Assembly: GCF_004295345.1 (NCBI RefSeq)
Contig: NZ_CP036200.1
Location: 372,001 to 436,000 of the forward strand
Source: Shewanella maritima
GTDB lineage: Bacteria; Pseudomonadota; Gammaproteobacteria; Enterobacterales; Shewanellaceae
Direction: 5' to 3'
Length of the DNA stretch: 64,000 nucleotides
Every line of letters begins with the position of its first letter. Positions within the stretch are counted from its first letter, which is position 1. Shown one piece after another: positions 39,633 to 45,898 of the stretch. Under the pieces are notes generated by a model, which ran no database searches, had not been told where the DNA came from, and saw nothing but the letters and a program-made list of their open reading frames with translations. Made by a program: the position numbers and the translations under genes.

Positions 39633-41426
39633 ATGGCTGAGCGCAAAAAACAAATGAGCCGCGACAAAATTTCACGCTTAGTGAATTGGGGGCACTGGTT
39701 TGCCTTCTTTAACGGTTTTTTAGCCATGCTAATTGGCAGCAGATACATCCGCAGTGTCGGTTGGCCTGACTCCACGCTTGAGTGGGGATACCTCGCAATT
39801 AGCACCATAGGCCACTTTACCTTTTTAGCGTTTTTAGTGTATTTGGTATTTATTTTCCCGGTTACCCTTGTTTTACCCTATTCCAAGATTTTGCGTGGGT
39901 TTACTGCGTTTGTCGCATCACTTGGTTTATATGCATTGTTATTTGATACCTTGATTTATGACGACTACGGTATTCATTTAAGCCCGTTTGCATTCGATTT
40001 AGCCTGGCAAGACTTAAGCTCACTACTTCATAGCACTTCTTATATCTCCGTCCCTTTAGCGATCTTAGTGTTAGAGCTCACCGCGGCAAACTATATATGG
40101 AAGCGCATCGACAAAATCCAGAAAAAACAGTGGGGGAATAAAGTCGTTATCTTTGTTGGTGTTTGCTTTTTTGCCAGTCACCTTATCCACATTTGGGCCG
40201 ATGCGACGCAAGTCGATAAAATCACCCGCTATGATGATGTGTACCCGCTGTCATACCCTGCCACAGCGAAATCATTTATGGCCAAAAGTGGCATTCAAAA
40301 CGAAGACGATAATAGCCAGCCTAGGCTTCATGCCAACAGTCAATTAACATATCCAATTACCCCTATGCAATGCTCTGCACCAAGTGATGCTAACAATGTA
40401 TTGATGGTAGTGGTTGATAGCCTTCGCGCTGATATGATCACTGACAAAACTATGCCATTCCTCACTCAGTATCAGCAGAAAAATACCTTATTTACCCAGC
40501 ATTACACGGGTGGTAATCAGTACTTAACGGGTATGTTCTCACTGCTATACGGCATCCAAACAAGTTATATAGACCGCATTGAATTTAGGCTAACAGAACC
40601 TGTACTCACTCAAGTGCTTGCTCAACAGAATTATCAACGTCAATTATTTACCTCTGACGAAAACCTGCAGCTATTGAGTCAAAGTGCGATTGCAAGCCAG
40701 TTTGCCGTATCATCGCACTCAGATAAGCGTGGCAGCGCTCAAGTCGACGCCGCAATCACAGAAGATTTTAATCAATGGCAGGCGAGTCAGGCTCAGCCTT
40801 GGTTTGCGCTAGTGAACTACTCCTCACCAAGAGACTACGACACACCTGCAGGCTTTTTAGGCATTGAAACTATCGCGCCGCCTATGCCACTTAAAAGCGC
40901 TGAAAAGGTATTGTTTAACCAATACCGTCAATCACTTTTCTTTATTGATCAGCAGCTAGAGCAGCTATTAAAAAATGTCGACCCACAAACAACCGTAATC
41001 ATCACCGGCACCCATGGGCAGGTATTTACCAGTAACAGCCGTGAGATCCGCCGCGACTTTTCACCAGCTAATGTGAAGGTACCATTAATCGTGCATGAAG
41101 CTGGCAGAACAGCAAAAGAGATCAATTATCGCACCAGCCACTACGGTCTAGCACCTACGCTAATGAGCCACATGTTTAACTGCACTAACCCAGTAACAGA
41201 TTACAGCAGTGGCCGCACCCTATTCCAACCTGGTCACGATGAATGGGTCTACATAGGTAACAGCCGGGTCTTTGCTATATACCAAGCTAAAGAAGCAACT
41301 GTGTTAGACAGGCATGGCAACTACCAAATCTATAATCTCGACTTTACCAAACAGCTAGAGAAGAAAATGAGTGCACCTGAGCTTATTCAGGTGATGCGCG
41401 AAGGTAGGCGTTTGTACAACAACTAA
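39633..41426 (+). CDS. lapC: Inner-membrane LapC/YejM (PbgA), sulfatase-fold regulator of LPS synthesis
   Basis: The 597-residue inner-membrane protein has the DUF3413 N-terminal domain with five hydrophobic segments (about residues 15-190; NWGHWFAFFNGFLAMLIGSRYI and LVYLVFIFPVTLVLPYSK) and a periplasmic alkaline-phosphatase/sulfatase domain (VLMVVVDSLRADMI, FTQHYTGGNQYLTGMFSLLYG, VIITGTHGQVFTSNSREIRRDFSPANVKVPLIVHEAG). In E. coli LapC (YejM, PbgA) senses LPS and controls LpxC degradation through LapB/FtsH. DSLRADM lacks the canonical catalytic Cys/Ser nucleophile arrangement, as in LapC. Start at 39633 or the Met a few codons later. A terminator follows. Confidence 0.93.
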   Translation: MAERKKQMSRDKISRLVNWGHWFAFFNGFLAMLIGSRYIRSVGWPDSTLEWGYLAISTIGHFTFLAFLVYLVFIFPVTLVLPYSKILRGFTAFVASLGLYALLFDTLIYDDYGIHLSPFAFDLAWQDLSSLLHSTSYISVPLAILVLELTAANYIWKRIDKIQKKQWGNKVVIFVGVCFFASHLIHIWADATQVDKITRYDDVYPLSYPATAKSFMAKSGIQNEDDNSQPRLHANSQLTYPITPMQCSAPSDANNVLMVVVDSLRADMITDKTMPFLTQYQQKNTLFTQHYTGGNQYLTGMFSLLYGIQTSYIDRIEFRLTEPVLTQVLAQQNYQRQLFTSDENLQLLSQSAIASQFAVSSHSDKRGSAQVDAAITEDFNQWQASQAQPWFALVNYSSPRDYDTPAGFLGIETIAPPMPLKSAEKVLFNQYRQSLFFIDQQLEQLLKNVDPQTTVIITGTHGQVFTSNSREIRRDFSPANVKVPLIVHEAGRTAKEINYRTSHYGLAPTLMSHMFNCTNPVTDYSSGRTLFQPGHDEWVYIGNSRVFAIYQAKEATVLDRHGNYQIYNLDFTKQLEKKMSAPELIQVMREGRRLYNN

Positions 41427-41458
41427 ATGTCGCTGTATTTTAACTACTTAACAGATTT

Positions 41459-41493
41459 AAAAAGCCCTTTGCTTATCAGCCAAGGGCTTTTTA
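41459..41493 (+). terminator. Terminator after lapC
   Basis: AAAGCCCTT and AAGGGCTTT form a 9-bp stem, followed by TTTAT, 33 bases after the stop. Confidence 0.85.
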
Positions 41494-41566
41494 TTTACGA
41501 GCGGTTTGATTCTGCCATCAATTTATTAAGGCAGATGGGACTAAACAAAGTTGTGGAAAATAACAA

Positions 41567-41599
41567 GTAGCGAGTAGCGAGTAGCGAGTAGCGAGTAGC
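41567..41599. repeat. Heptanucleotide tandem repeat (GTAGCGA)n
   Basis: GTAGCGA occurs four times and a fifth partial copy, with no mismatch, in non-coding DNA between lapC and tRNA-Pro. Such short repeats vary by slippage. Confidence 0.93.
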
Positions 41600-41768
41600 A
41601 GTGTAATAGTAACCGACCGACATTTGTGAGCTTACACACTTACTTGGTTGAGCTATGGCCCCTCACTTTGCCACGCACGCTAATTACTGTAAAGAACCTA
41701 AATATCTGCGAATTAACCTACGTGGAATGCAAGTTGTTAAGCAATAGCTTACAGATGAACAAAAGACA

Positions 41769-41806
41769 AAATGCCCGTTAATCGCTAAATTAACGGGCAT
41801 TTTTTA
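41769..41806. terminator. Bidirectional terminator downstream of tRNA-Pro
   Basis: AATGCCCGTTAAT and the complementary ATTAACGGGCATT form a stem of 12-13 pairs just past the tRNA 3' end, with T-rich sequence on both sides. Confidence 0.88.
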
Positions 41807-41808
41807 AT

Positions 41809-41885
41809 TGGTCGGTATGAGAGGATTCGAACCTCCGACCCCTGACACCCCATGACAGTGCGCTACCGGGCTGCGCTACATACCG
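41809..41885 (-). tRNA. tRNA-Pro, anticodon GGG, with encoded CCA
   Basis: The minus strand folds into a complete cloverleaf: acceptor CGGTATG pairing with CATACCG, D arm GCGC..GCGC, anticodon arm with loop ATGGGGT (GGG in the middle, one T-T mismatch in the stem as in E. coli proL), and the T arm CGGAG with GTTCGAATC. The discriminator A is followed by encoded CCA. It decodes CCC and CCU proline codons. All 77 bases are intact and the gene stands alone with its own terminator. Confidence 0.95.
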
Positions 41886-42234
41886 AATGGTGGAAAATAA
41901 AGCATTTCAAATTGTTCTAACACCCTGCTTTATTTATATTTTATGCGCGAGTAGAGATTATCAAAGCCTGCCTAATAGGTAAAGCTTGAGTAATGTTCAC
42001 AAGTGTTGATTGTTTATCCATTAACCAAGCTGTTCATCTAGCCTAACTCAGTGTGTCTGCACAAGCCCACTTAATATCAGTAAGCAAAGCCTTAGACTAA
42101 ATGTTACGAATACGGTTTATAAACACCAGTTAGCTGCCCTTACTTAAGTCGGTAATTTAGGACTGAAAGTAAATATCCACCTTCTAAAGAAGGGGCTTTC
42201 AGTGGTTTTGTATTCTCAGCAGCATCTATAAGTG

Positions 42235-42345
42235 ATGATATTTAAAGCCTTTGAAAACATGGATGTTTTCGTTGAGCCTTCTAGTAAAACAAAGGGAGGA
42301 TGTGCTTACTGCGTGCTTTAAATATCATTACATAGAAGGCTCAAC
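42235..42345. other. Crossed perfect inverted repeats (potential RNA or DNA pseudoknot)
   Basis: Two perfect inverted repeats interlock. ATGATATTTAAAGC (42235-42248) pairs with GCTTTAAATATCAT (42315-42328), and GTTGAGCCTTCTA (42271-42283) pairs with TAGAAGGCTCAAC (42333-42345). Their order A-B-A'-B' means the two stems cross. Between A and B sits the hairpin GAAAACAT-GG-ATGTTTTC. Twenty-seven paired bases without a mismatch are very unlikely by chance. Function unknown. Confidence 0.75.
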
Positions 42346-42389
42346 CTAACATGTCATGTAAACAGAAATACAGGCAAAGCCTACTCGAT

Positions 42390-42419
42390 GATAACCACCT
42401 ACTGAAGTAGGTGGTTTAG
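42390..42419. repeat. Hairpin repeat, copy 1 (identical to copy at 45830)
   Basis: The 30 bases here and at 45830-45859 are identical. Each holds the 11-bp perfect stem AACCACCTACT/AGTAGGTGGTT with loop GA. Both lie immediately past the terminator of a TonB receptor gene. Confidence 0.9.
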
Positions 42420-42428
42420 GGCTGAAAA

Positions 42429-42457
42429 CAAAAAAAGCCTCCGCGAACGGAGGCTTT
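42429..42457 (-). terminator. Terminator of the TonB receptor ending at 42484
   Basis: AAAGCCTCCG and CGGAGGCTTT pair around CGAA; on the minus strand a run of Ts follows, then GTTTTCA. It lies about 30 bases after the stop. Confidence 0.92.
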
Positions 42458-42483
42458 GGGTCATCTAGGGAGAGATGAACTAA

Positions 42484-45129
42484 TTAGAACTTTTGGTTAA
42501 TACGTAGGTAGTAAGTACGACCTAATACATCGTATAAACCAGTATTCACGTCACGGTAATCTGGGAAGTTATACCAAGTCGGCGCTTCTTCATCAAATAC
42601 GTTGTTCACACCAACAGTAATAGTACCGTTCCAGTCATGGGTGTAACCAACTTGTAAGTTGTGCTTGAAGTAGTTTGGCGTATCGATGATGTAATCATAG
42701 CCAAGGTCACGCCAGTATTGACCAGACTGGCTACCAATGTATACCGTTGTCCAAGCCGCATTCCAATCATTGTAGTACCATGCTGCAGCAAAGTTACCAC
42801 GCCATTGTGGGTAATCTTGAACACCAGCACTATCAATCTTGTCTGATTCAGCATTTGCTTGCTCCACAAACTCTAGTACATGAGTCATGTCTAGCTTCAG
42901 GTTGAAGTCACCATAGTTTGTTTCAAAGTTATATGCTGTTGCAAAGTCGAAACCACTGGTTTCTACCGATGCCATATTTACGTAACCACTCTCGATGTAC
43001 TCAATCTTACCGTCAGCACCACGTGTAACGAAATCAGAACCACCGTTTAATAGTTCATCTCGTAAGATATCTGTTACTGAGATAGCTTCAATCTTGTTGT
43101 CATAAGTGATGTCGTAGTAAGAAAGCTCTACACTCCAAGCATCTGTAACATTCCAAACTGCACCTAAAGTTAGTGAGTTACCTTCTTCAGCTTCTAGGTT
43201 CGGATTACCACCAAACCAAGTTTTGTGCTGCTGACCAGTACCACAGTAATCATCATCAGGGTTTTCATTACAGTAAGTTACGTCATGCGCAGTTTCAAAG
43301 CTTAACGATTGTGAAGAGAACATCTCACCCATGTTTGGTGCACGGAATGAATCACCATAGCTTGCACGGATAAGTAATTCATCAATTGGGCGCCAGCTTA
43401 CACCTAATTTGGGTACTACAGCATCAAATGTAGAAGAGTTAGTAACTTGACCTTCAGCGCCAGTTAGTGTTCCTGACTGGTCGTATTTTTCATAACGAAT
43501 TGCAGCAGAGATATCTACATTACCTGGTAAACCTACTTGGAATTCAGTGTAAGCAGCAGTACGATCACGCTCAGCGTTTACGTCGTCACCACCAGAACCA
43601 CCAGAGATAATGCCGGCGGCTGATTCTGGATCAGAAGTTTGCTTAAAGTTGATCATTTCATACTCTGCACCAACTACCATCGCTACTGAAACATCATCAC
43701 CCTCATAAAGCAAGGTAGATGCTAGGCCATCAATTTGAGTGCTATCAAACTTACCTTGATAAACACCTGTATGAGCGGCAGCAGAATATAGCGCAGTCAT
43801 TTGCTGGTTCCACTCATCGTACTCCATACCTGAATAATTAAAGATATCGTACTTACCAGTATCAATTTCACTCTGGATAATGTTGTCATTAATCAGGTTA
43901 TAGTTAAACGAGTTAGTAGTCGAACCAGATACTTGTGCATTAATTTCCCAATCAATACCATTACCGACATCTGTGTAACCTACTAAACCACCTAAGAAGT
44001 CATAGTTATTGGTTTCGGTTAACGTGTCACGCTCACCAATCTGAACAGAGCGCATATATACTGTCATGTCTTCGCCAACCGGGTTAAACGGGTTGTCAGC
44101 AGACATTACAGGGTAGTTAGTTGATACTGGAGTACCAGCGTAGCGAGTCTCTGTTTCACTTAAAGATGCTGAACCACGGCCACGGAACTGAATGTCATCA
44201 GTAAGTGAGTAGCTGAAGTTAGTCATAAACGAGTTACGAGTCATATCACCAAACAGCTTAGTTACAGCCCCATAACTATAACGACATTGGCCCACATTGT
44301 TGCCATCTGTTCTATCGACTACATTTTCAGTTTGCTCACACATCTCTGAATTTGAGTAGTTAACCCAACCATTACCGTCATGATATGAGCCATTAGGAAC
44401 AGAACTAAACAAGCTATACGCATTGTAAGCTGGGTTGTTTAGATCCCAGATATCTTTATCCATTACTGATGCGGTATCATAATACTCATAGGTAAAGGTA
44501 ATGTTGCCTTTATCAGTGTTGTAGCCAGCTGACAAAGAAAAACGTGAAGACTCACCACCTTCCACATCAGGCATCTCAGTGCTGTAATCGAGCTGAACAC
44601 CGTCAAACTCTTTTTTAGTAATAATGTTGATAACACCAGCAACCGCGTCAGAACCGTATACCGCAGAAGCACCATCACGCAAAATTTCAATACGCTCAAC
44701 GATAGCTGTTGGAATTTGCGACGTATCAGCTGTAGTACCAGAGCTTGAGCTGGTACCAGGCATACGACGACCGTCTAAAAGAACTAGGGTTGCTTGAGAG
44801 CCTAGACCACGCATGTTAATAGAACTAGTTGCACTTGCACCAGAACCATAGCCAGACATACCACGCCATGAACCAAATGCGTTGATAGATGAGTTGTTAA
44901 GTACGTCTGCGACTGTTTTTTCACCAGTAAGAGCAATATCCGCTGCACTTAAAACCGTAACAGGCGAAGAAGTTTCCATATCAACTTGCTTGATACGTGA
45001 ACCTGTTACTTCAATACGCTCAACTTTTTCTTCTTCTGCAAAAGCAGAACCTGTAAATGCAACTGATGTAGCAGCAGCTGCTAGAAGGCTGCGACGAATC
45101 GCTTTGGCCGTTAATGATTCAGAACTCAT
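42484..45129 (-). CDS. TonB-dependent outer-membrane receptor
   Basis: An 881-residue TonB receptor. The signal peptide begins MSSESLTAKAIRRSLLAAAATSVAF and ends at SAFA-EE; the ATG at 45129 follows GAGGGAG. Next comes VERIEVTGSRIKQVDMETSSPVTVLS, a plug (residues about 60-175 with MRGLGSQATLVLLDGRRMPGT and YGSDAVAGVINIITKKEF), and a barrel ending in YYLRINQKF. FRAPNMGEMFSSQ marks the barrel mid-region. It shares its 13-residue export start MSSESLTAKAIRR and general plan with the next upstream gene, and looks like a diverged duplicate. Ligand unknown. Confidence 0.93.
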   Translation of the reverse strand: MSSESLTAKAIRRSLLAAAATSVAFTGSAFAEEEKVERIEVTGSRIKQVDMETSSPVTVLSAADIALTGEKTVADVLNNSSINAFGSWRGMSGYGSGASATSSINMRGLGSQATLVLLDGRRMPGTSSSSGTTADTSQIPTAIVERIEILRDGASAVYGSDAVAGVINIITKKEFDGVQLDYSTEMPDVEGGESSRFSLSAGYNTDKGNITFTYEYYDTASVMDKDIWDLNNPAYNAYSLFSSVPNGSYHDGNGWVNYSNSEMCEQTENVVDRTDGNNVGQCRYSYGAVTKLFGDMTRNSFMTNFSYSLTDDIQFRGRGSASLSETETRYAGTPVSTNYPVMSADNPFNPVGEDMTVYMRSVQIGERDTLTETNNYDFLGGLVGYTDVGNGIDWEINAQVSGSTTNSFNYNLINDNIIQSEIDTGKYDIFNYSGMEYDEWNQQMTALYSAAAHTGVYQGKFDSTQIDGLASTLLYEGDDVSVAMVVGAEYEMINFKQTSDPESAAGIISGGSGGDDVNAERDRTAAYTEFQVGLPGNVDISAAIRYEKYDQSGTLTGAEGQVTNSSTFDAVVPKLGVSWRPIDELLIRASYGDSFRAPNMGEMFSSQSLSFETAHDVTYCNENPDDDYCGTGQQHKTWFGGNPNLEAEEGNSLTLGAVWNVTDAWSVELSYYDITYDNKIEAISVTDILRDELLNGGSDFVTRGADGKIEYIESGYVNMASVETSGFDFATAYNFETNYGDFNLKLDMTHVLEFVEQANAESDKIDSAGVQDYPQWRGNFAAAWYYNDWNAAWTTVYIGSQSGQYWRDLGYDYIIDTPNYFKHNLQVGYTHDWNGTITVGVNNVFDEEAPTWYNFPDYRDVNTGLYDVLGRTYYLRINQKF

Positions 45130-45829
45130 TTTTATCTCCCTCAATACGTTAAATCAAATAACGCAATGTTTTTTATTGTTTTAGCTGTTAACCGATAGTT
45201 AACCGCTTGAGTTCGATACTGTTAAATAGGTGTAACCCAATCAACTGAATTCATTATAAAAAAACCACCAAATCACAACTTGATACTATTTTTGCACGAA
45301 TGTTACACATAACGATAGTACAATTCATTTTAAATCAAATACTTAACTAAATGAGTGCGTAAATATATTCAAACAAACCACGCGGAAACACAATGTAACA
45401 CTGGTTACTCAGTGGTATGAACTATGTAACAAACATGTTCCCAATGAGAATTAACCCAAAATAAACACATAATCATTCAAAACTTTTTTCTTACCTGCAT
45501 ATAAAACATTCGAAAGTTAACAATGAAGTTACAAAACAGAGTAAAAAATGTGAATAAAGGCTTATTTTGACGCAATGTGTTGAAAATAAAGACAGCTACG
45601 GGGTGAATAACTATTTATAGGGGTCAATGCAGTTTGTTATCTATGCTTTAGCAATAGGAGTTATCAGCACGATGTAAAATACCTCTTTCTACACAAAGTG
45701 GCTTTGTGTTGGTTCCCTAAAAAAGAACCTAACGTCACCAACTGCAGCGATAACCAAGAGTAATGAGCAAATTGTTAAAGCTGCCAGGTCTGAAAAACAC
45801 CAGAATTTATAGGAAAAGTTCAATCAAGT
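45130..45829. other. 700-bp intergenic region between two TonB receptor genes
   Basis: Contains the promoter region of the downstream receptor. Strongly AT-rich. I see no gene, RNA or clear operator; 45830-45859 is the shared hairpin repeat. Confidence 0.5.
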
Positions 45830-45859
45830 GATAACCACCTACTGAAGTAGGTGGTTTAG
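45830..45859. repeat. Hairpin repeat, copy 2 (identical to copy at 42390)
   Basis: Same 30 bases as copy 1, with stem AACCACCTACT/AGTAGGTGGTT. It lacks the left hairpin and the crossed repeats seen with copy 1, so it may be a solo end. Confidence 0.9.
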
Positions 45860-45870
45860 AGATTGAAAAC

Positions 45871-45898
45871 AAAAAAAAGCCACCCAAATAGGTGGCTT
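45871..45898 (-). terminator. Terminator of the TonB receptor ending at 45919
   Basis: AAGCCACC and GGTGGCTT pair around CAAATA. On the minus strand eight Ts follow. Confidence 0.9.

What the first reader, a model, noticed from the sequence alone, without database searches (positions are those of the whole stretch)
42156..42427. Possible undescribed structured element: IS200-like hairpin ends around crossed perfect inverted repeats
Two perfect inverted repeats of 14 and 13 bp are interlocked (A-B-A'-B') with an 8-bp hairpin between them, all inside a non-coding block bounded by direct TTTAGGrCTGAAA copies and two related hairpins. That arrangement predicts a pseudoknot and would be a strong fold for an RNA. 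IS200/IS605 elements also carry guide-type RNAs (omega RNA) for TnpB, so a transposase-free element with a preserved structured core is plausible. It could equally be a selfish DNA structure processed as single-stranded DNA.
Basis: partly seen in the sequence, partly recalled or inferred. Interest (0 to 1): 0.72.

Follow-up and report, generated by a model that had tools for sequence, protein, structure and literature searches.

The report
YPAL-like RNA fold inside IS200-type element
The block is a small transposon-like element with IS200-type ends that carries a copy of a widespread and strongly conserved RNA-like fold, known in Yersinia as the YPAL repeat, whose two hairpin loops look like binding sites for the global regulator CsrA.

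Summary
The block (about 42169-42429) is a ~260-bp non-autonomous IS200/IS605-type element. Its ends match an IS with a 144-aa Y1 transposase in relatives. It sits at the T-tract of a TonB-receptor gene's terminator; the 9 orthologous loci read have the terminator but not the element.

Inside lies a separate unit, 42229-42335 (+), found at 48 places in this Shewanella genome and in 71 of 369 sampled genomes of its class. It is a three-way junction: in 21 distant copies 99.0% of pair cells pair and 27 of 32 pairs show double changes. A/A' is its outer stem. B/B' is perfect only in the window copy, so the pseudoknot fails. The core aligns with the published YPAL/RU-2 repeat of Yersinia and resembles Rfam TwoAYGGAY.

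Both loops keep NGGA in a CsrA-like frame while stems covary, and G-U exceeds A-C on that strand. I infer RNA-level action through CsrA binding; nothing here shows binding or transcription, and the window copy has an altered second hairpin and no promoter-like site nearby. A new variant of a known kind.

The parts
42169..42429 (-). Non-autonomous IS200/IS605-type element; exact tip at the LE side between 42424 and 42429
   Evidence: Ends match those of the tnpA-bearing IS in L032 and L039; 44 own-genome matches, whole or in part
42393..42416 (-). Left-end (LE) hairpin, AACCACCTACT / AGTAGGTGGTT
   Evidence: Inverted repeat I5, 11 nt, 100%; same hairpin upstream of tnpA in L032, L039
42177..42193 (-). 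Right-end (RE) hairpin, partly decayed; element tip GTAAA at 42169
   Evidence: Same RE hairpin and TTTAC tip after tnpA in L032 and L039; read by eye
42229..42335 (+). YPAL-type structured core, GGA strand
   Evidence: Model R1 match, 74.8 bits, E 5.2e-20; 50 own matches at 48 places; aligns with YPAL/RU-2
42232..42248 (+).
   Evidence: Covarying helix: 12 of 16 pairs doubly changed in A1, 16 of 16 in A2 and in A4
42315..42331 (+).
   Evidence: As above
42253..42270 (+). Hairpin 1, loop TGGA (ACATGGATGT)
   Evidence: Loop GGA in 31 of 31 own cores with letters there and 85 of 86 rows of A2, one gap (those loci were found with this hairpin's sequence); stem covaries in A4
42274..42314 (+). Hairpin 2 region, carrying an insertion in this copy; GGA at 42298-42300
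   Evidence: Compared with intact own copies such as L004 and L013
42333..42345 (+).
   Evidence: 13/13 only in the window copy, 12/13 in L171
42434..42457 (-). Intrinsic terminator of the TonB-receptor gene; element inserted at its T-tract (42430-42433 and onward)
   Evidence: Terminator scan; terminator without the element in the 9 orthologous loci read
42136..42168 (-). Likely remnant of a second, decayed LE next to the RE tip
   Evidence: 22 of 30 positions identical to the intact LE; reading by eye

Best explanation
A composite element. The carrier is a non-autonomous IS200/IS605-type element, inserted at the T-tract of an intrinsic terminator (ends and target shown); it was presumably moved in trans as single-stranded DNA by the Y1 transposase of a related IS (inferred). 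The cargo is a YPAL-type element: a three-way junction read on the window's plus strand, with a long outer stem of free sequence and two hairpins presenting NGGA loops (fold shown by covariation). Most likely it works as RNA by binding the CsrA dimer through the two hairpins: locally, as a site in 3' regions reached by read-through, and collectively, over some 48 copies, as a dispersed decoy that buffers CsrA beside the CsrB-like genes (inferred). The window copy keeps hairpin 1 but has an altered hairpin 2, so it may be a weak or single-site copy. My odds: the anatomy about 0.95, RNA-level function about 0.7, CsrA as the partner about 0.45; the figure below is for the whole statement.
For: Ends and transposase in relatives. 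Terminator directly before LE in 15 of 19 own and 26 of 28 relative LEs against 74 of 1133 other TTTT[TC] sites. Empty orthologous sites, 9 of 9 read. Fold: A1 95.4% of cells paired and 18 of 32 pairs doubly changed, A2 94.8% and 27 of 32, A4 99.0% and 27 of 32; slid controls 29-51% paired; no shuffle of 500 reaches the covariation score. Breadth: 81 of 86 other Shewanella genomes, 71 of 369 genomes of the class. Strand: G-U 119 against A-C 12 in A2, 72 against 13 in A1. Loops: CA(N)GGA in both loops of 21 of 21 rows of A4, close to the CsrA consensus RUACARGGAUGU (PMC4347634 passage). CsrA and two CsrB-like genes are in the genome. TwoAYGGAY, of the same architecture, was proposed to bind CsrA (PMC4333381 passage).
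Against: No transcript and no binding data. No promoter-like site in 41400-42600 (0 found, 2.6 expected), so expression of the window copy would need read-through. Orientation to genes is mixed and flipped between Marinobacter species, which speaks against a gene-specific role. The window copy's second hairpin is altered. G339, 98% complete, has 9 core matches but is not among the CsrA matches. G-U against A-C is not significant in A4 (7 to 2), and the count of pair types is not clear of the shuffles in A1 (33 of 500) or A4 (8 of 500). YPAL has been discussed as an insertion element affecting mRNA stability, not as a CsrA ligand (PMC2229807 passage).
Confidence: 0.45

Rival explanations
1. RNA-level element without CsrA: the long stem protects or exposes mRNA 3' ends, or is cut or read as a two-way terminator, as discussed for YPAL, ERIC and REP; the GGA loops serve another protein or the fold alone.
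For: 61 of 136 classified cores lie between convergent genes and 4 between divergent ones (crude ORF calling). YPAL is described as lying downstream of and cotranscribed with genes and possibly affecting stability (PMC2229807 passage). Position tolerant of flipping.
Against: It does not explain why both loops keep NGGA with a free N while the stems change. No consistent T-tract follows the stem in the 21 distant copies read.
Confidence: 0.25
2. Purely a DNA element: the fold matters only as single-stranded or cruciform DNA for transposition or replication, and the copies have no cellular role.
For: Dispersed, multicopy, mobile look; tandem arrays (L093, L189); IS200-type carrier that is known to act on single-stranded DNA (family knowledge); copies outside the carrier with other flanks.
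Against: G-U far exceeds A-C on one strand, though selection on one strand of DNA could do part of this. Compensatory change in hairpin stems around fixed loops.
Confidence: 0.22
3. One reading: a transposase-free IS200 derivative with a pseudoknotted RNA, perhaps an omega-RNA relic.
For: IS200-type ends; B/B' is a perfect 13-nt match in the window copy.
Against: B/B' is absent from the other own copies but one sister. The core occurs without IS200-type ends in 8 of 32 own copies and in relatives. The relatives' IS carries tnpA in the four loci seen. No Rfam match of the window to IS605-type RNA families.
Confidence: 0.03

Closest known systems
YPAL / RU-2, Yersinia palindromic sequences (PMC2759123 and PMC2229807, passages)
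   Same: Same three-way junction: hairpin with NGGA loop, then CGAGC, then ACA-N-GGA hairpin, then TTTAC-GCG, then outer-stem arm; aligns column for column. Dispersed, intergenic, multicopy.
   Different: Here inside an IS200-type element in Shewanella, and found across 64 of 272 sampled genera of the class, while the review lists Yersinia and Erwinia. YPAL is reported to make target duplications of 3-26 bp; the carrier here should not.
TwoAYGGAY RNA, Rfam RF01731
   Same: Outer stem plus two hairpins with AYGGAY-type loops; overlaps two distant cores on the same strand (L232 40.4 bits, L231 35.3 bits; cut-off 43); often lies next to cores in Shewanella.
   Different: No match to the window core even at E up to 10 or to the Marinobacter core at E up to 5; much longer second hairpin (alignment).
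Ysr224, Yersinia sRNA, Rfam RF02770
   Same: Matches 9 of 19 distant core loci at E up to 0.1, best 51.3 bits.
   Different: All nine matches are on the strand opposite to the GGA strand and below the cut-off of 70 bits.
CsrB/CsrC/RsmY/RsmZ decoy RNAs
   Same: Hairpins with GGA loops in CsrA-type context.
   Different: Two sites per unit, many dispersed copies, no own promoter seen at the window copy.
IS200/IS605 family and its non-autonomous derivatives
   Same: Subterminal hairpins at both ends, relative IS with a Y1 transposase, no transposase inside.
   Different: Carries an unrelated structured cargo; a clear preference for terminator T-tracts.

Membership tests
IS200/IS605-type non-autonomous element | Ends shared with an autonomous element encoding a Y1 transposase | tested here: met
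   L032 and L039 read in full; 144-aa Y1_Tnp, 132-133 bits
IS200/IS605-type non-autonomous element | Subterminal imperfect hairpins, no terminal inverted repeats, no target duplication | tested here: inconclusive
   Hairpins present; relatives without the element show the terminator but flanks are too diverged to fix the insertion point to the base
IS200/IS605-type non-autonomous element | Active transposase in the same genome | tested here: not met
   Only one Y1_Tnp in the own genome, 242-247 aa, 58-60 bits, different type
YPAL / RU-2 | Core sequence and fold of the published repeat | tested here: met
   Alignment A5, 21 columns invariant over 13 sequences including the published one
YPAL / RU-2 | Own ends (about 168 bp) and target duplications of 3-26 bp | tested here: inconclusive
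   Not tested for cores outside the carrier; in the window the ends are those of the IS200-type carrier
TwoAYGGAY (RF01731) | Match to the Rfam model at its cut-off | tested here: not met
   Window core: no match up to E 10; best distant core 40.4 bits against 43
TwoAYGGAY (RF01731) | Junction with two hairpins whose loops hold AYGGAY | tested here: met
   A2 and A4 structures and loops; the base before GGA is free, not only Y. The window copy itself has an altered hairpin 2
CsrA-binding RNA | GGA in hairpin loops within the SELEX-type consensus | tested here: met
   21 of 21 rows of A4 for both loops by pattern; consensus from PMC4347634 passage
CsrA-binding RNA | Binding and titration of CsrA | not testable with these tools
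   Needs experiments
TnpB omega-RNA | tnpB beside the RNA, or relatives with the same ends and tnpB | not tested
   Only tnpA-sized ORFs noted beside the ends in four loci; no TnpB search was run
GTAG/CGTC REP | 20-40-bp palindrome with an unpaired GTAG or CGTC tag | tested here: not met
   The unit is a 93-107-nt three-way junction; definition from PMC3733652 passages

The most novel reading that the evidence does not exclude
YPAL, TwoAYGGAY and this core are branches of one class-wide family of mobile CsrA-binding RNA modules: genomes carry tens of dispersed copies that together titrate CsrA, and the module spreads by being packaged into unrelated transposable elements, here an IS200-type element that lands at gene terminators.
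Probability: 0.3. Interest if true: 0.85.

Novelty: new variant of a known kind. Interest (0 to 1): 0.58.

Why it matters
YPAL has been listed for Yersinia and Erwinia (PMC2229807 passage). Here it becomes a class-wide, strongly covarying structure with two CsrA-type loops, linked to TwoAYGGAY, an Rfam family with a proposed CsrA role; the four of five listed TwoAYGGAY papers that I looked into showed no test of it in the passages seen. If the loops bind CsrA, mobile repeats would help set the free level of a global regulator, and a transposable element would have captured a regulatory RNA module as cargo. It is directly testable: Shewanella genomes hold tens of copies, including natural copies with an altered hairpin 2 and one without the core.

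Tried and rejected
Rejected: a pseudoknot from crossed A/B repeats; a target duplication from the TTTAGGrCTGAAA copies; chance miRNA, snoRNA and other low-scoring Rfam hits; the own 242-247-aa Y1 protein (L061) as the mobilising enzyme; an integron attC reading of GTTGAGC/GCTCAAC (site order wrong from recalled rules, B' not conserved); CGTC-tagged REPs (PMC3733652 passages). One exact pattern gave 0 matches in viral contigs; that does not exclude diverged phage copies.

Literature: ten searches. The three papers listed hold YPAL but 0 occurrences of CsrA; one search listed 12 of 56 papers, one search listed 20 of 52, one search listed 15 of 124. The primary YPAL paper (De Gregorio 2006) is not held, so its content is known to me only from passages of PMC2229807 and PMC2759123. 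Seen as passages only: PMC3733652, PMC4333381, PMC2864571, PMC11701678, PMC11661157, PMC4347634, PMC2229807, PMC2759123, PMC2267715, PMC9029176, PMC5193452; no paper was read in full.

Limits. Per-genome counts are floors (29 and 11 candidates scored per genome). Gene contexts come from crude ORF calling and several cores of one array count apart. Of 52 rows found, 32 went into A1: left out were 5 loci (L030, L037, L064, L069, L078; truncated, chance or recombined), 11 own copies with the inserted hairpin 2, three near-duplicates (two of L062, and L079) and L076_m586. A1 is thus biased to intact copies. The loci behind A2 were found with an exact hairpin-1 pattern, so its hairpin-1 conservation is partly by selection; A4 was not chosen so, but holds the best-scoring loci only. 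The alignments were fitted to the model, which leans towards it. The CsrA co-occurrence count of 66 of 71 is my reading of two printed lists, uncorrected for phylogeny.

Full report
What is there. The block lies in a 4.72-Mb Shewanella genome (genus inferred from named relatives whose contigs coincide with those searched) between a DUF3413/sulfatase gene, 39633-41426 (+), with tRNA-Pro 41809-41885 (-) after it, and a TonB-dependent receptor gene, 42484-45144 (-). No Rfam family but the tRNA reaches its cut-off in the window.

Carrier. The block has 44 matches in its own genome, whole or in part, and matches in 59 of 145 genomes of a relatives sample that includes the own genome. In 4 of the 29 relative loci fetched (L032, L039, L042, L044) a 144-aa ORF lies beside the matched end; the two tested are Y1 transposases, 132-133 bits. 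In L032 and L039 the order is terminator T-tract, AGCCC-TAAACCACC hairpin (LE), tnpA, RE hairpin, TTTAC. The window block has the same ends in the same order on the minus strand and no transposase. The own genome has one Y1 protein of another type, so the element is non-autonomous here and probably stranded.

Target. An intrinsic terminator directly precedes LE in 15 of 19 own and 26 of 28 relative LEs, against 74 of 1133 other TTTT[TC] sites in the same loci. At the window site, 9 orthologous loci of the 14 relative loci fetched were read: all 9 have the TonB-gene terminator and none the element in the 330 nt looked at by eye. One literature search for IS200 and terminators listed a single paper, on a group II intron; nothing more was searched on this.

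Cargo. The unit 42229-42335 is not part of the IS. In relatives it occurs with other flanks, and in L034 a short element with the same ends lacks it (by eye). Of 32 own cores, 14 have both IS200-type ends, 6 only LE, 4 only RE and 8 neither (background 2 of 500 stretches for each end). A covariance model from 32 cores gives 50 matches in the own genome, 48 places once two antisense doubles are removed. In the relatives sample it matches 95 of 145 genomes: the own one, 81 of 86 others of the genus and 13 of other genera. In an even sample of the class it matches 71 of 369 genomes, 64 of 272 genera. An exact hairpin-1 pattern found 60 stretches in named genomes of Shewanella, Reinekea and Marinobacter and none in viral contigs (a slightly shorter pattern).

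Structure. The consensus is a three-way junction: a long outer stem of free sequence, hairpin 1, GAGC, hairpin 2 with a bulge, GCG. Paired cells and doubly changed pairs are 95.4% and 18 of 32 in A1, 94.8% and 27 of 32 in A2 with 73 distinct rows, and 99.0% and 27 of 32 in A4 with 21 distant rows. Slid controls pair 29-51%, and none of 500 shuffles reached the covariation score in any of the three; the count of further pair types was reached by 33 of 500 shuffles in A1 and 8 of 500 in A4. Divergent own copies show hairpin 1 with other, complementary stems around the same loop. B/B' is complete only in the window copy and nearly so in one sister; there it competes with the conserved fold. The window copy belongs to a subtype with an insertion in hairpin 2.

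RNA or DNA. A palindrome decaying without selection should show as many A-C as G-U mispairs on a given strand. On the GGA strand G-U exceeds A-C 119 to 12 in A2 and 72 to 13 in A1; in A4 it is 7 to 2, not significant. In the 79 sense rows of A3 it is 178 to 26. Related rows are not independent and the alignments were fitted to the model, so this is support, not proof. No promoter-like site was found in 41400-42600 (0, with 2.6 expected), so the window copy would depend on read-through.

Relatives. The published RU-2/YPAL sequence (PMC2759123 Table 1b, passage) aligns with the cores column for column, 21 columns invariant over 13 sequences. Rfam Ysr224, from Yersinia, matches 9 of 19 distant core loci, each time on the opposite strand and below its cut-off. 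TwoAYGGAY has the same junction and loop type, matches 60 of 145 genomes of the relatives sample (21 over its cut-off), lies beside cores in several (for example G071 C12, G004 C2, G078 C110), and overlaps two distant cores on the same strand at 40.4 and 35.3 bits, under its cut-off of 43. It was proposed to bind CsrA (PMC4333381, passage).

Likely action. In the 21 distant rows both loops read CA(N)GGA. In A2, loop 1 holds GGA in 85 of 86 rows and one gap, and loop 2 holds GG in 85 and A in 80 of 86, the rest gaps; the base before GGA in loop 2 is free. This is close to the CsrA SELEX consensus RUACARGGAUGU, with ACA and GGA invariant (PMC4347634, passage). The genome has CsrA and two tandem CsrB-like genes at 51 and 50 bits, below the cut-off of 71. 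By my reading of the lists, CsrA is found in 66 of 71 genomes with cores and 247 of 298 without; among good assemblies 59 of 60 and 221 of 254 (Fisher p 0.04 and 0.009). Phylogeny is not corrected for, and G339, 98% complete, has 9 cores and no CsrA match. Orientation to genes is mixed: 61 convergent, 34 and 18 in tandem pairs, 4 divergent of 136 classified. In Marinobacter the core beside a D-amino-acid-dehydrogenase-like gene (named by eye) is turned round between species. A genome-wide decoy or an unspecific 3'-end effect fits this better than control of one gene. Transcription, CsrA binding and movement are inferred.

Verdict. Not an artefact, and not wholly new: a YPAL-type structured element, newly placed in Shewanella and inside an IS200-type element, with a testable CsrA hypothesis. 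The odds for the whole best explanation are 0.45, since they include CsrA; the anatomy itself I hold at about 0.95.

Noticed in passing
window 45690-45877: A second element with the same IS200-type ends, again next to a terminator, in which the core is missing: it looks like a natural deletion of the palindromic core.
   Followed up: partly
window 41566-41599: Tandem array of AGTAGCG, 4.9 copies, 100% matches, after the sulfatase-type gene.
   Followed up: no
L061 (G000:C1 near 3479145): The own genome's only Y1 transposase gene (242-247 aa) is flanked by several TGGGTCAGAGTAAA-like repeats, possibly its own REP-like partner.
   Followed up: no
L090, L092, L098, L101, L106, L118, L119 (Marinobacter): A core at an orthologous spot beside a D-amino-acid-dehydrogenase-like gene, with diverged but still complementary outer stems, reads in opposite directions in different species: a possible inversion within the palindrome.
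   Followed up: partly
L093 (Shewanella inventionis), L188 and L189 (G045, G050): Same-strand arrays of 4 to 8 cores at spacings of about 200-540 nt, a bit like multi-site decoy RNAs.
   Followed up: no
L174 and G000:C1 2354212-2354762: A TwoAYGGAY match on one strand flanked by two cores on the other, in one intergenic region.
   Followed up: no
L069, L078: Cores interrupted right after hairpin 2's GGAT by a shared foreign sequence, likely an IS that targets the core.
   Followed up: no
G000:C1 3836850-3837915: Two tandem CsrB-like RNA genes, 50.5 and 51.2 bits, below the Rfam cut-off of 71.
   Followed up: no
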